Shown: in pieces, positions 22,382-30,212 of the stretch | How the letters are laid out: each line of letters begins with the position of its first letter | Numbering within the stretch: the first letter of the stretch is position 1 | Notes under the pieces: generated by a model | The model's input: only the letters and a program-made list of their open reading frames with translations | The model's database searches: none | Told to the model about the DNA's origin: nothing | From: a virus | Direction: 5' to 3' (one strand) | Length of the DNA stretch: 30,410 nt | IMG/VR virus record: IMGVR_UViG_3300025120_000321 | Span: 1-30,410 of that record | Made by a program: the position numbers and the translations under genes

Positions 22382-24562
22382 ATGGCTAACGCAAAAATTA
22401 TAAACTACGGCCAGCAAATCAGCGCAGGCTCTACGGCAATCCCAGACAACAACGCTACGGCGCTTGATATCGAATCGACGGATGCGAAAGATTATATAAC
22501 GCTCGATACGACCGACGGAAACGAGATTATCACTCTCGGCCAAAAAACTTACGTTTACGGCGAGGGCGGTTCTCTCGGTGATGCTGTGTTCGATGCGGAG
22601 GACGTTGTTCTTTATGTCGAAAATGGGACAGCAAACAGCGCAGCGGCCAGCATTATCGAGGTAAACTCAAGCGGCTCTAACGGTTCACAGCTCATCATGA
22701 GCGTTGACGATGCGCACAAAGGCGTTATTAAAATCGAGGGCAGTGGTGATAACGACATGCTTCTCGGCACGTATTCCGGCGCAGGGGATACCAAGATTCA
22801 GGCGGGTGGTGTTGAGCGTGCGCGTCTATATGACAAGGGCGTAACAATTACCGGGTACGGTGGAACAACCGGTGGCTCTCCAAACGAGGCCGAAGACGTG
22901 GCGCTCTACGTTGAGAACGGTACAGCAAACAGCACGAATGCCTGCGTTGTCGAGATAAACGCTGATGGTTCAAGCGGTTCACAGGTTTGGTTTTCGGCGT
23001 CAGACGCCCTTAAGGGCTATGTCGGGTACAGCAGTAATAAAATGCTTCTGCATACCAATAATTCAGCAACTGATATCTCACTAGCGGCAAATTACATTGA
23101 GCGTCTAAATATTGATGCGGGCACAGGAGCAACAAAAATAACCGGTCCCCTATCAACGGTCGGCCTAGTGGCAACAGCATTGACCGACAGCGGCGGCACC
23201 GCATCGGTAAGCACTAGCGGCTCAAGCACTACGTTGGCGGGTGTTAATACTACGTTCCTTACTGATTTTCACGTAGGCGCAGCGATTAAGGTTGGGACTG
23301 TAACTACAACCGTTACAGCTATCGCAAGCGCAACATCGCTTACACTTGAAGATGCAATCAACACCAGCTCAACCGGTGTAACTTGTACTCGTGACGGCGG
23401 CGAACTCTTCGCGGTTAAGACTGGTGATAGTAAATCACTATTTAGCGTGAATGAAACCGGCGCAATTGGTTGCGGTAGTGCAGCGGGCACAGCTCACGCA
23501 TCAAATAATATTGCAATCGGTGACGATGATGCGCTTGATGCAATCACAACAGGTGTAAGCAACGTAATCGTGGGCGGTTCCAATGCTACGCATCAGCTCA
23601 CAACAGGCAGCCGCAATGTAATCGCGGGCTATCGGGCGGGTGAGGATTGCACTAGCACCAGCGACTCGGTAATTATAGGCGAGATTGCTGGCGCTGTTGG
23701 TAATATGGGGAGTCAGCAAGTTCTTATCGGAAGGGGTGCGGGCACGTCTTCAACTGATATCAACAACGTAGCAGTGGGTTATCAGGCTATGTACGATTGC
23801 AGCGGACGCAATAATGTTGCAATGGGTCACTCAGCACTTAAGGCCACCGGTTCACAAGATTCTTGCGTTGCGCTTGGGATGCAGGCGCTTGTTGCCGCGA
23901 CTGGAGGCGAAAATATAGGAATCGGACAAGACGCGGGAGCCGCGATTGAGGGCGGGTCTTCAAATATCTGTATCGGCCATCAATCAAACACTGGCGCTGC
24001 ACAAACTAAATCAATCGCCATAGGTCATCAAGTGGCTGCATCGGTAAACCAGAAAGCCTACATCGGTGATGGCTCAAGTTCTACGTCAATTGTTTTTAGT
24101 GGATCCGGTAACAGTTGGTCAACGGCGTCTGACAGCAGAATTAAAGAAAACGTTGAAGACAATGCCTTGGGCTTAGATTTTATTAATGCGCTTAGGCCCG
24201 TTAAATACACTGAGATAAACCCACAAGACTGGCCAGAAGAAATTAGGCCTCATATCTTTTTTGATAAAACAGCAACGCGAATTAATGAGGAAACAGGCGA
24301 AGAAGAAACCTACGTAATTCCAGCAAATGAGCGCAACCCTACTTGTACCGATGTTTTTGACGGCTTAATTGCTCAAGAAGTTAAGGCGGCAGCAGATGCA
24401 GCAGGAACAACGTTTTCAGGATTTGAAGACAGCGAGCCTAATGGCCTTGTACGTCTACAGTATGAAAAATTTGTGGTGCCTTTGATTGCAGCCTGCCAAG
24501 ACTTAAGCGCTCAGGTCACGGCGTTAACTGCCAGAGTATCAGAGCTTGAGGCAGGCGACTGA
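22382..24562 (+). CDS. Tail fiber/spike with YadA-like repeats and S74 chaperone
   Basis: The 726-residue receptor-binding type protein has four visible parts. Near the N-terminus is a tandem repeat of 98-residue period: E73-DVVLYVENGTANS and E171-DVALYVENGTANS. Residues about 262-330 are a beta region (TTLAGVNTTFLTDFHVGAAIKVG). Residues about 375-560 carry repeated NxxIG/VGxxAG-like units that resemble the left-handed beta-roll of trimeric YadA-type heads. The C-terminus is a Peptidase_S74 intramolecular chaperone, TASDSRIKEN, ending in a coiled coil. In this family the chaperone helps trimer folding and then cuts itself off with a Ser-Lys dyad. By analogy with endosialidase, the cut would fall between A582 and S583, with K588 as partner, freeing 144 residues. 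Confidence 0.85.
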   Translation: MANAKIINYGQQISAGSTAIPDNNATALDIESTDAKDYITLDTTDGNEIITLGQKTYVYGEGGSLGDAVFDAEDVVLYVENGTANSAAASIIEVNSSGSNGSQLIMSVDDAHKGVIKIEGSGDNDMLLGTYSGAGDTKIQAGGVERARLYDKGVTITGYGGTTGGSPNEAEDVALYVENGTANSTNACVVEINADGSSGSQVWFSASDALKGYVGYSSNKMLLHTNNSATDISLAANYIERLNIDAGTGATKITGPLSTVGLVATALTDSGGTASVSTSGSSTTLAGVNTTFLTDFHVGAAIKVGTVTTTVTAIASATSLTLEDAINTSSTGVTCTRDGGELFAVKTGDSKSLFSVNETGAIGCGSAAGTAHASNNIAIGDDDALDAITTGVSNVIVGGSNATHQLTTGSRNVIAGYRAGEDCTSTSDSVIIGEIAGAVGNMGSQQVLIGRGAGTSSTDINNVAVGYQAMYDCSGRNNVAMGHSALKATGSQDSCVALGMQALVAATGGENIGIGQDAGAAIEGGSSNICIGHQSNTGAAQTKSIAIGHQVAASVNQKAYIGDGSSSTSIVFSGSGNSWSTASDSRIKENVEDNALGLDFINALRPVKYTEINPQDWPEEIRPHIFFDKTATRINEETGEEETYVIPANERNPTCTDVFDGLIAQEVKAAADAAGTTFSGFEDSEPNGLVRLQYEKFVVPLIAACQDLSAQVTALTARVSELEAGD

Positions 24563-27809: not shown

Positions 27810-28754
27810 CTAGGCGCTAAACTCGCCATCTTTGTCAGGCATATCGCAGAGCCCCCAGCTCTGACACCCGCGCTCACTCTCATCGGCAGGCAGAAAAAGC
27901 TCTAGGCCGTATTGATGCCCCCCGCGCTCAGTCTTTGACCACTCGGCAACTTTGTCTATTGGCCAGCACTCGCCCGTTCCGCCAGTCTTGGCTTGAAAGA
28001 AGGCAGGCTTGCCAATGCCACGACTCTCAAAAGTCTCACCTGTTTGTGCCAACCGCGCTGCTGCTTTCTCCGCAACCTTTTCTTCTAGTGTCCTGATTTG
28101 AACAATTCTATCAGGGTCAGTTTCAACCATTGCCCTGATCTCACTTTTTTTTGACATGATACAGGGCCAGCACCCCACCCTCTCAGACGGGTACTTGTCT
28201 TTGAGGTACAAGGGGCAAGGGCGCAGATTGTTTCGGTTGTGGATATCTATTACGTCTTGCACTACCCAAGTAATTAGAGGCCGCCAAGTGTCGCAAAGAT
28301 TTTTTCCCAAAATAGAACCGGGTTCCCACCTATCCATTTTACTACGGGCCTTACTTTCGGCTGCTCGAATCCCTACCGCGTTAATTGGTAAGGGGCTGTT
28401 GCCAAGCTCCCGGATATGGTCCCGGATAGGGAGCTTTTTTAATTGCTCAGTGCAGAATCGACCCATGCGCGAGGGCATTGCGCCCTTGGAGACCACCAAG
28501 TCTGGCATCCCTCCAGGATATTTTTTGCTAACAACGCGGTAAAACCTGTCACCAAGAAGCGGCTTCACGATGCTTTCAATGTACTCGTACAACACTGGGT
28601 GCTCCCACCCCGTGTCAGCCCAGACATAATGGATGTCATTGCTTTCCTCGAACCCGTTCTCTCGAAGCCAAAGCGCCATAGCAATCGAGTCTTTGCCGCC
28701 GCTCACAGAGCAAACAATAGGTCTTCCAGAATCCTTAATCTCTTGATCGTCCAT
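27810..28754 (-). CDS. PP-loop (PAPS reductase/DndC-like) protein
   Basis: The 314-residue protein has the PP-loop SGGKDS (18-23), which binds the adenylated substrate. A following VWADTGWEHP resembles the strand and loop after the PP-loop in PAPS reductases. Cysteines C101 (RFCTEQLK), C180 (RPCPLY), C195 and C198 (GCWPC) form a set that could hold an iron-sulfur cluster, as in DndC and related sulfurtransferases. The plain PAPS reductase active-site ECGLH tail is not present. Possible reactions are sulfate-derived reduction or sulfur transfer to DNA or tRNA. AGGAA lies before ATG 28754. It faces the late operon and is last in a three-gene leftward unit. Confidence 0.75.
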   Translation of the reverse strand: MDDQEIKDSGRPIVCSVSGGKDSIAMALWLRENGFEESNDIHYVWADTGWEHPVLYEYIESIVKPLLGDRFYRVVSKKYPGGMPDLVVSKGAMPSRMGRFCTEQLKKLPIRDHIRELGNSPLPINAVGIRAAESKARSKMDRWEPGSILGKNLCDTWRPLITWVVQDVIDIHNRNNLRPCPLYLKDKYPSERVGCWPCIMSKKSEIRAMVETDPDRIVQIRTLEEKVAEKAAARLAQTGETFESRGIGKPAFFQAKTGGTGECWPIDKVAEWSKTERGGHQYGLELFLPADESERGCQSWGLCDMPDKDGEFSA

Positions 28755-28792
28755 CCCAAATTCCTGCTCGATTTAGTTCTGACGCAATGCGT

Positions 28793-28999
28793 CTAGATAA
28801 CTCTTTTTTCTTGGCCCTTGCTCTTATCTTCAATCCTATTAACAGGGTCAGTGTAAGAGCCAGCACAACTGCCGCTATCTTCATGGTGCCCCCTGATAAA
28901 CTCTAGCACGCTGCTATCTTGTTTCGTAGGCCCCGCTTGCGCCCACCCCAGGAGGAAGGCGAGCGCAAGACTAGCGATAGCAAGAAACCCTGCAATCAC
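28793..28999 (-). CDS. Small membrane or secreted protein, 68 aa
   Basis: The start is GTG 28999, overlapping the previous stop as GTGA. The N-terminus MIAGFLAIASLALAFLLGWA is hydrophobic, then AQAG gives a possible signal peptidase site. A polar tail of about 45 residues follows with one cysteine (SGSCAGS). It might anchor in the inner membrane or be exported. Placed between a hypothetical and the PP-loop gene, it could be a superinfection or envelope factor, but nothing shows that directly. The start depends on coupling, since no own ribosome binding site is clear. Confidence 0.5.
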   Translation of the reverse strand: MIAGFLAIASLALAFLLGWAQAGPTKQDSSVLEFIRGHHEDSGSCAGSYTDPVNRIEDKSKGQEKRVI

Positions 29000-29232
29000 C
29001 AGTTGTTAGAACCGCTGGAGCCACCGGAGCCTTGCCCCTGCTCGTCATCACTTGGCGCAAGACTGATAATATAGTCAGGGTGCGCGTCGCTTTCTTTTCT
29101 ATCGTTCTCTTGCAGGACAAGGCGGCGTCCGCCGAGCATGACGCCAAGAACGCCTTCGGCTTGGCCTGTCATAGTCCCGGGCTTCTTGCCCTTCCACATT
29201 GCTGCAATCTTTTCCCATCTCTGCTTTGCCAT
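28996..29232 (-). CDS. Hypothetical early protein, 78 aa (KExDxHPDYxxxLAP type)
   Basis: I choose ATG 29232 (MAKQRWEKIAAMWKGKKPGT), with AAGGAAG upstream. A longer start at 29292 would run through the divergent promoter region. The middle, VMLGGRRLVLQENDRKESDAHPDYIISLAP (about 31-60), looks like a small beta barrel. It resembles short conserved phage proteins whose role I do not know. The C-terminus DDEQGQGSGGSSGSNNW is an acidic glycine/serine tail, a layout also seen in single-strand DNA-binding proteins, though the core is too short to claim that. It is the first gene of the leftward cassette. Confidence 0.65.
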   Translation of the reverse strand: MAKQRWEKIAAMWKGKKPGTMTGQAEGVLGVMLGGRRLVLQENDRKESDAHPDYIISLAPSDDEQGQGSGGSSGSNNW

Positions 29233-29260
29233 AGTATCTTCCTTAAAAAGTGAAATAAAG

Positions 29261-29297
29261 TTGACGCTAGCATTGTTTGAGCTTAGTATCAAGCACA
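29261..29297 (+). promoter_or_regulatory. Promoter and operator-like dyad for the recombination genes
   Basis: TTGACG (29261-29266) and TAGTAT (29284-29289) are 17 bases apart and fit a sigma70 promoter. The transcript would begin near 29296, just ahead of the TAGGAG ribosome binding site. The inverted repeat TGAGCTT (29278-29284) / AAGCACA (29291-29297), 6 of 7 matching, covers the -10 element. A dimeric repressor bound there would block transcription. The leftward cassette must also start in this 86-base gap; TTGATA on the minus strand is a possible -35. Confidence 0.5.
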
Positions 29298-29318: not shown

Positions 29319-30212
29319 ATGACAGGTTCATTACCAGGGTTACCTCGCAAGGTTTGCATAGGTAGCTCCGAAATTAAAAGCCTTTTGGGTACTTGTACCC
29401 ACAGGGGGCCGTACGACGTGTGGGGCTCAAAGGTAACCGACGAGGAAGAGGTTTTTGTTAACGGCGAATATATGGAAGTTGCGACGGTGCTGGAGTCTTC
29501 ATTCTTGAAGCTTACCGAGATGAAGTTGCAGCGCCAAGGCTTCGATATCATCATCAAGCCGGGGAAGACTGTGTATAAGGAAGTTGACGGCGTGAATCTT
29601 CGAGACACTGCCGATGGCTTTGCAGTGCCTTCTACGCGCCACCACAAGCCGCTTTACACCATTGAAACAAAGGCAGGCTACAGGGCCGACCGTGACTACT
29701 ACGGTGAAGAGTGGACTGACGACGTTCACGAAGGTTACAAGGACCAGTGCATCTGGCATTGTGGGATGACAGGCGCTCCTGCCTGCGTCCTCAGCGTACA
29801 GTTTTTTCCCACTGAGTTTCCAAAAATCTACGTGATTAAGGAAGACCCTGAGCGCTTTGCGTTGCAGGTCAACACGGCTGTCTCATTCTGGAAAGACCAT
29901 GTTGAAACAAATATTGCTCCGCCAACAGATGCGTCTGCTGCTTGTGCTCGACATCTTGCGAAGCTTGCTATGAATAGCGAGAACTTGAGAGATGCGTCAC
30001 TTGATGAGCGCGCCTATGCCGAGGAGCTGGCCCAGCTTAAGAAGATTGAGAAAGCAAACAAGACGCGTATTTCGCTGCTTCAAAATCAATTGCGTGAAGC
30101 AACCGGCGAGTATCGCGGCATTGACTTTGGCGACGGTGCCAAGATTACGTTCTCCCCAGACAAAAACGGCAAGCGGCGTATGTCGTCATCCTTGAAAGCA
30201 TTGGAGATATAA
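29319..30212 (+). CDS. YqaJ/RecE-type viral exonuclease
   Basis: The 297-residue protein has the YqaJ nuclease series: VLESSF with E59, RDTADGFAV with D99, IETKAG with E116 and K118, then YKDQCIWHCGMTG with Q143. These correspond to the metal-binding E, D, ExK and the Q helix of lambda exonuclease-like enzymes. Such nucleases chew one strand of a DNA end and leave single strands for an annealing protein. The C-terminal 90 residues are helical (LAQLKKIEKANKTRISLLQNQ) with a beta end, as often seen in phage YqaJ proteins. TAGGAG precedes the ATG. The next gene looks like the annealing partner. Confidence 0.8.
   Translation: MTGSLPGLPRKVCIGSSEIKSLLGTCTHRGPYDVWGSKVTDEEEVFVNGEYMEVATVLESSFLKLTEMKLQRQGFDIIIKPGKTVYKEVDGVNLRDTADGFAVPSTRHHKPLYTIETKAGYRADRDYYGEEWTDDVHEGYKDQCIWHCGMTGAPACVLSVQFFPTEFPKIYVIKEDPERFALQVNTAVSFWKDHVETNIAPPTDASAACARHLAKLAMNSENLRDASLDERAYAEELAQLKKIEKANKTRISLLQNQLREATGEYRGIDFGDGAKITFSPDKNGKRRMSSSLKALEI

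What the first reader, a model, noticed from the sequence alone, without database searches (positions are those of the whole stretch)
27810..28754. Antisense PP-loop enzyme with a possible iron-sulfur cysteine set
SGGKDS plus C101, C180, C195 and C198 point to a sulfur-handling enzyme closer to DndC-like or tRNA-thiolating proteins than to plain PAPS reductase. If it modifies DNA, the phage might protect its genome with sulfur or use another base or backbone change. No DndB, D or E partner is visible in the window.
Basis: partly seen in the sequence, partly recalled or inferred. Interest (0 to 1): 0.55.

Follow-up and report, generated by a model that had tools for sequence, protein, structure and literature searches.

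The report
Phage DndC/SspD-like sulfurtransferase, labelled PAPS reductase
A viral gene usually labelled as a sulfate-metabolism enzyme has the active-site layout of bacterial enzymes that put sulfur into DNA, and its relatives tend to sit next to DNA methyltransferase genes, so it is more likely a nucleic-acid modification gene than a metabolic one.

Summary
The ORF is real (314 aa, 27810-28754, minus) and belongs to a widespread phage family (phrog_424, Pfam PAPS_reduct) that includes phage 186 orf84. The cysteine list needs correction: C101, C195 and C198 are invariant in 133 of 133 non-redundant relatives, but C180 is Cys in only 9; a conserved C-terminal pair was missed, C297 (130/133) and C303 (129/133). 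This layout plus an intact SGGKDS loop matches SspD; DndC shares the first three cysteines. It does not match APS reductase: the second cluster cysteine is Thr/Ser in 133/133 and the ECGLH motif is in 0/133 (7/8 APS reductases). Among defence models the protein scores nearest SspD, but far below SspD references and the DndC cut-off, and the phage family forms its own clade on a quick tree. No Dnd/Ssp partner was found. Across 133 loci, DNA methyltransferase genes cluster next to the gene (55 within 2.5 kb, 3 further out), though none was found in this window. Most likely: a stand-alone, ATP-dependent, three-Cys iron-sulfur sulfurtransferase acting on nucleic acid, DNA first. Cluster, substrate and chemistry are inferred, not shown.

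The parts
27810..28754 (-). PP-loop sulfurtransferase-like protein, 314 aa (phrog_424 / PF01507)
   Evidence: protein-level constraint
28686..28703 (-). codons 18-23, SGGKDS pyrophosphatase loop
   Evidence: K21 is Lys in 123 of 133 relatives, gapped in 9, Thr in 1
28452..28454 (-). C101, inferred Fe-S ligand in motif RFCTxxLKxxP; followed by T102 where APS reductases have the second Cys
   Evidence: 133/133; position 102 T/S in 133/133 against C in 8/8 APS reductase references
28161..28172 (-). C195-x2-C198, inferred Fe-S ligands in RVGCxPC
   Evidence: 133/133, 57/57 in the set not chosen by this motif
27846..27866 (-). C297 and C303, conserved C-terminal cysteine pair (C-x5-C, ending GLC)
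   Evidence: 130/133 and 129/133; low model confidence there, pLDDT about 56
28735..28884 (-). 49-aa small ORF with hydrophobic start and RRIASELNRAG tail, overlapping the gene's start
   Evidence: tail motif found upstream of the gene in 10 of 178 relatives, all among the 12 nearest viral loci
28996..29292 (-). 98-aa upstream ORF, same strand, no family above a curated cut-off

Best explanation
A phage-encoded, ATP-dependent sulfurtransferase of the DndC/SspD mechanistic type that acts on nucleic acid, most likely phage DNA, as an anti-restriction modification. Proposed steps: (1) the SGGKDS loop binds ATP and adenylates the acceptor [inferred from motif and fold]; (2) C101, C195 and C198 hold a [4Fe-4S] cluster with one open iron site, because the fourth ligand of APS reductase is replaced by Thr/Ser [inferred from alignment]; (3) the C-terminal pair C297/C303 receives sulfur from a host cysteine desulfurase and delivers it [inferred by analogy with the DndC cysteine dyad]; (4) the target is DNA, acting with or beside DNA methyltransferases [inferred from neighbourhood]. 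Shown here: family, motif and cysteine conservation, predicted fold, differences from CysH, DndC and SspD, and the methyltransferase clustering. My estimate is about 0.7 for the sulfurtransferase class and 0.45 for the class together with a DNA target.
For: Cysteines C101...C195xxC198...C297, C303 in nearly all of 133 relatives. All eight SspD references have the first three, and 7 of 8 have Cys at each C-terminal position; all five DndC references have the first three. The second cluster Cys of APS reductase is T/S in 133/133; ECG[IL]H 0/133 and CC..[RK]K 0/133 against 7/8 and 8/8 APS reductase references. PADLOC: SspD 78.1 bits, DndC 40.9, BrxP 36.6; CysH-type NCBIfam models 34.9, 20.7 and 17.3 bits. 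Confident PP-loop model, pLDDT 89.4, near PAPS/APS reductases (Z about 17) and, lower, the [4Fe-4S] tRNA thiolase NcsA (Z 13.8, rmsd 2.7, 162 residues). DNA methyltransferase genes in 51 of 133 loci, 55 within 2.5 kb against 3 at 2.5-5 kb, while all called neighbours split 1057 to 735 (Fisher p 6e-10); without P2-like loci 46 to 3, in 42 of 117 loci (p 1e-7). L006, 87% identical, has a C5-cytosine methyltransferase 374 nt downstream. PMC10853773 (passages seen) describes DndC as a 4Fe-4S protein with three cysteine ligands and a cysteine dyad thought to carry sulfur.
Against: No direct evidence for a cluster, sulfur transfer or modified DNA. DndD 0 of 48 records, SspC 0 of 44, no Dnd/Ssp family in 40 proteins. 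Of the seven closest non-redundant relatives only L006 and L022 have a methyltransferase within 5 kb (some of these loci are short), and none was found in the window. The best fold and profile matches among solved structures are true PAPS/APS reductases. In NCBIfam, reductase models match more of the 103 members (PRK02090 103, APS_reductase 99, cysH 95) than DndC does (73), and for the window the uncharacterised models PRK08576 (53.6 bits) and PRK08557 (42.9) score above DndC. SspD references, themselves picked by score without a look at their operons, give 307-455 bits with the model that gives this protein 77-78, so the kinship is distant. The C-terminal pair lies in a low-confidence part of the model.
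Confidence: 0.45

Rival explanations
1. A tRNA or other RNA thiolase: same three-Cys cluster and PP-loop chemistry, but on RNA, to adjust translation or repair host tRNA during infection.
For: The fold is near the [4Fe-4S] tRNA thiolases NcsA (Z 13.8) and TtuA (12.5) and the sulfur transferase LarE (12.0); no DNA-scanning Dnd/Ssp partner was found. LarE-type model TIGR00268 matches 12 and a TtuA model 2 of 103 members.
Against: No tRNA-thiolase model is among the 14 NCBIfam families that match the window protein at E 1 (TilS, a lysidine synthetase, is, at 0.081). Neighbours are often DNA methyltransferases. From recall, TtcA and TtuA have CxxC first and the single Cys later; here the order is the reverse, as in SspD, DndC and APS reductase.
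Confidence: 0.2
2. An assimilatory PAPS/APS reductase, i.e. a genuine cysH auxiliary metabolic gene that helps the host make sulfite.
For: Standard annotation; best solved matches by fold and by profile are PAPS/APS reductases; PRK02090 matches 103, APS_reductase 99 and cysH 95 of 103 members.
Against: ECG[IL]H catalytic motif 0/133; intact SGGKDS-type loop where all 8 APS reductase references have A and E at positions 20 and 21; window scores far below cut-offs (34.9 of 154, 17.3 of 165.1, 20.7 of 235.3 bits).
Confidence: 0.12
3. A non-transferase PP-loop protein: a regulator, or a decoy that interferes with host phosphorothioation or sulfur supply.
For: Gene without a recognised partner; phage 186 orf84 is annotated 'unknown function; not essential'.
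Against: Loop and cluster residues are kept almost throughout, also in the diverged allele of L010-L012, which would be unusual for a pure decoy.
Confidence: 0.15

Closest known systems
SspD of the SspABCD ssDNA phosphorothioation system
   Same: PP-loop, WCTxxLKxxP cysteine, GCxxC pair and a C-terminal cysteine pair; best PADLOC score
   Different: 78 bits against 307-455 for SspD references; outside the SspD-holding clade; C-terminal pair spaced C-x5-C, not CxxC; no SspC found, no Ssp family nearby
DndC of the Dnd phosphorothioation system
   Same: PP-loop, C-T and GCxxC motifs; three-Cys cluster plus dyad reported for DndC (PMC10853773, passages)
   Different: 29.4 bits against a cut-off of 290.4; in the DndC references the extra cysteines lie mostly just before the CxxC, not at the C-terminus; no DndD found
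Phage 'PAPS reductase' family phrog_424, e.g. Escherichia phage 186 orf84
   Same: Same family, 6.6e-54; the seven named-phage copies examined have all five cysteines
   Different: 186 copy only about 30% identical and with Asn at position 180
Assimilatory APS reductase (CysH class)
   Same: Fold and the C...CxxC positions
   Different: Second cluster Cys replaced by T/S, no ECGLH, intact PP-loop
PptA, solved structure 21fy chain C
   Same: PAPS-reductase-like chain matching the family profile over positions 6-236 (E 3.3e-5) and an SspD reference (E 1.4e-4)
   Different: Function not known to me; two literature searches found nothing on it

Membership tests
PF01507 / phrog_424 phage PAPS-reductase-like family | Profile match (above curated cut-off for Pfam) | tested here: met
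   PF01507 63.5 bits, cut-off 22.5; phrog_424 E 6.6e-54
Assimilatory PAPS/APS reductase (CysH) | Curated NCBIfam score | tested here: not met
   34.9 of 154, 17.3 of 165.1 and 20.7 of 235.3 bits
Assimilatory PAPS/APS reductase (CysH) | C-terminal catalytic ECG[IL]H | tested here: not met
   0 of 133 relatives (L001, identical to the window protein, among them), 7 of 8 APS reductase references
DndC | TIGR03183 score above 290.4 bits | tested here: not met
   29.4 bits
DndC | DndD ATPase partner | tested here: inconclusive
   0 of 48 records including the window, but virus records may be fragments
SspD | Five-cysteine layout with C-terminal pair | tested here: met
   spacing of the pair differs
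SspD | Score and position inside the SspD clade | tested here: not met
   77 bits against 307-455 for references; on a quick tree 51 phage-family rows form one clade (SH-aLRT 88), SspD lies in another (100) with seven other rows
SspD | SspC ATPase partner | tested here: inconclusive
   0 of 44 records, but virus records may be fragments
tRNA thiolases (TtcA, TtuA, NcsA) | Fold with three-Cys [4Fe-4S] site | tested here: inconclusive
   NcsA Z 13.8, TtuA 12.5; no tRNA-thiolase model at E 1
DndC/SspD-type sulfurtransferase (mechanism) | [4Fe-4S] cluster and sulfur transfer to DNA | not testable with these tools
   Needs protein and DNA chemistry

The most novel reading that the evidence does not exclude
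The common viral 'cysH' of this family is a third lineage of nucleic-acid sulfur-modifying enzyme, stand-alone in phages, that works in DNA-modification islands with methyltransferases, possibly placing sulfur on DNA or on a methyltransferase's target base, so that a core 'sulfur metabolism' gene is really an anti-restriction gene.
Probability: 0.25. Interest if true: 0.85.

Novelty: new variant of a known kind. Interest (0 to 1): 0.5.

Why it matters
Viral cysH is counted among globally conserved auxiliary metabolic genes and read as viral involvement in sulfate reduction (PMC9301287, passages), while a 2025 review lists viral cysH from soil as not validated (PMC12713726, passages). PMC11437467 (passages) has already remarked that phage PAPS-reductase homologues may do more than sulfur metabolism and noted their kin in phosphorothioation systems; what is added here is the cysteine pattern, the missing reductase motifs and the methyltransferase clustering. 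If members of this family are sulfurtransferases for nucleic acid, ecological readings that rest on them need revision, and a new DNA or RNA modification becomes testable in ordinary coliphages such as 186. Whether the cysH genes counted in those surveys belong to this family was not tested.

Tried and rejected
C180 as a family cluster ligand: rejected, 9 of 133. Membership in DndC, SspD or CysH: rejected on scores, motifs or tree. ParB as the recurrent partner: an annotated ParB gene lies about 2 kb upstream of phage Riah's copy and a ParB_N domain matches the L022 methyltransferase below its cut-off; I recognised no separate ParB cluster among the neighbour clusters that I looked at, but ran no ParB model over the neighbours. 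ASCH-like genes as partner: 10 loci, 6 near and 4 far; the ASCH name is my reading, the one exemplar scanned matched no Pfam family. PDB search by single sequence gave only chance matches. Cysteine geometry could not be measured, since model coordinates are not returned. No DndC or SspD structure is among the fold matches shown, which says nothing about fold difference. Ten literature searches: in the listings, and in passages of the eight papers I opened, I saw no test of a phage PAPS-reductase-like protein and no link to methyltransferases; only openly licensed PMC papers are held.

Controls on the neighbourhood test (26 clusters with at least four loci, no correction for many tests): the four methyltransferase clusters split 13/1, 11/0, 8/0 and 6/1 near/far (p 0.011, 0.0038, 0.024, 0.25). 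Other clusters with a near excess under 0.05 are two made almost only of P2-like phages (15/1, p 0.0037; 7/0, p 0.046); three P2-type clusters have a far excess. No broad non-methyltransferase cluster reached 0.05, though two lean near (6/1 and 5/0, p 0.25 and 0.083). So fixed gene order in related phages does produce such splits, and the case rests on the pooled test without P2-like loci.

Limits: of 179 loci that matched, L013 is the window's own copy; 178 were cut to 159 (240-370 aa, locus numbers under 165, no X) and then to 133 by shared four-residue words. The methyltransferase profiles were built from the recurrent neighbour clusters themselves, chosen by recurrence and not by distance. 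The tree holds 51 family rows and SH-aLRT values only. Neighbour genes were called by a simple ORF rule. Reference enzymes were chosen by model score; two of eight APS reductases and one of five DndC are below their cut-offs.

Full report
Observation. The ORF at 27810-28754 (minus) encodes 314 aa with SGGKDS at 18-23. It is a constrained protein: against L003, differences at codon positions 1, 2 and 3 number 29, 14 and 111. The window is a 30,410-base IMG/VR virus record with terminase and portal genes, an M23 peptidase gene and a capsid gene with a weak, below-cut-off SU10_MCP match. By the ORF list the gene is the last of a minus-strand group and faces the plus-strand late genes.

Family. 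Pfam PAPS_reduct (3.4e-17) and phrog_424 (6.6e-54). Of 50,697 phage records 72 have a match, all under 60% identity, including phage 186 orf84, annotated 'unknown function; not essential'. Twelve IMG/VR loci share 53-100% identity; wider scans kept 80 viral loci (one already held) and 80 genome loci.

Cysteines. In 133 non-redundant relatives C101, C195 and C198 are invariant, C297 is Cys in 130 and C303 in 129; C180 is Cys in 9 and Asn in 122. Because the viral scan used a pattern with C195 and C198, I counted the 57 genome-contig relatives separately: 57, 57, 57, 56 and 54 of 57.

Comparison with reference enzymes. By model score I took five DndC (four above the curated cut-off), eight SspD and eight APS reductases (six above the cut-off). 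In a joint alignment all of these have Cys at positions 101, 195 and 198. Position 102 is Cys in 8/8 APS reductases but Thr in 8/8 SspD and 5/5 DndC, and Thr/Ser in 133/133 phage-family members. At 297 and 303, 7 of 8 SspD have Cys at each; the eighth is a short ORF. ECG[IL]H and CC..[RK]K occur in 0/133 of the family against 7/8 and 8/8 APS reductases; literal SGGKDS in 121/133 against 0/8. I infer a cluster with three protein ligands and an open iron, plus a sulfur-carrying thiol pair. PMC10853773 (passages) describes DndC in these terms, and PMC12707154 (passage) equates SspD with DndC as the sulfur-transfer component.

Scores and tree. PADLOC ranks SspD first (78.1 bits), then DndC (40.9) and BrxP (36.6); SspD and BrxP match 103 of 103 family members, DndC models up to 96. 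Against this, NCBIfam reductase models match more members than DndC does: PRK02090 103, APS_reductase 99, cysH 95, DndC 73 of 103, and for the window the uncharacterised models PRK08576 (53.6 bits) and PRK08557 (42.9) lead, all far below their cut-offs. On a quick tree of 80 rows the 51 phage-family rows are one clade (SH-aLRT 88); SspD lies in another clade (100) with seven other bacterial rows, DndC (99) and APS reductase (100) are apart. So it works like DndC/SspD but is filed as a member of neither.

Structure. AlphaFold model, pLDDT 89.4, pTM 0.86; residues from about 281 on are weak. Best solved folds: PAPS/APS reductases (Z 16.3-17.4), then FAD synthase 14.3, the ATP sulfurylase subunit 14.2, NcsA 13.8, TtuA 12.5, LarE 12.0. 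The fold alone does not separate reductase from thiolase.

Neighbourhood. Genes within 5 kb of the 133 relatives were clustered. Exemplars of two recurrent clusters match C5-cytosine methyltransferases and of two more N6/N4 or D12 methyltransferases. Profiles built from these clusters match 58 genes in 51 loci; 55 lie within 2.5 kb and 3 beyond, against 1057 and 735 for all called neighbours (p 6e-10); without P2-like loci 46 and 3, in 42 of 117 loci (p 1e-7). In 18 loci the methyltransferase is within 100 nt, and 56 of 58 genes share the strand. Broad non-methyltransferase clusters show no significant excess, while some P2-type clusters do, in either direction (see Tried and rejected). Against: of the seven closest relatives only L006 and L022 have one, and none was found in the window.

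Partners. DndD 0 of 48 records, SspC 0 of 44, no Dnd/Ssp family in 40 proteins. Virus records may be fragments.

Allele exchange. Window and L010-L012 are 78-95% identical in DNA on both flanks but 42-59% in the 150-base bins inside the gene (three loci compared with one another's like result), with the loop and all five cysteines kept. The gene body has been swapped for a diverged allele.

Verdict. A widespread phage family labelled PAPS reductase or cysH is better read as a DndC/SspD-type sulfurtransferase, with DNA the leading substrate. This is inference from sequence and context and needs chemistry.

Noticed in passing
27857-28690, compared with L010-L012: Flanks are 78-95% identical while the gene body is 42-59% identical: an allele swap bounded by the gene's ends.
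   Followed up: partly
28735-28884 (-): A 49-aa hydrophobic small ORF overlaps the gene's start; its RRIASELNRAG-like tail is found in 10 of the 12 nearest viral loci while its membrane part varies.
   Followed up: partly
22382-24562 (+): Large protein, by position probably the tail spike (a phrog_4636 tail-spike match occurs in the scanned set, row not assigned); its C-terminus looks like an S74 chaperone (recalled).
   Followed up: no
29319-30212 (+): RecE-like recombination exonuclease (phrog_434, 1.7e-29).
   Followed up: no
L169, L170, L172-L174, L176-L178: Bacterial PAPS-reductase-like proteins with a CxxC tail; the six of these placed on the tree group with SspD. Their operons were not examined.
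   Followed up: no
PDB 21fy chain C: PptA, a solved PAPS-reductase-like chain related to SspD and to this family; its function could be a useful lead.
   Followed up: partly
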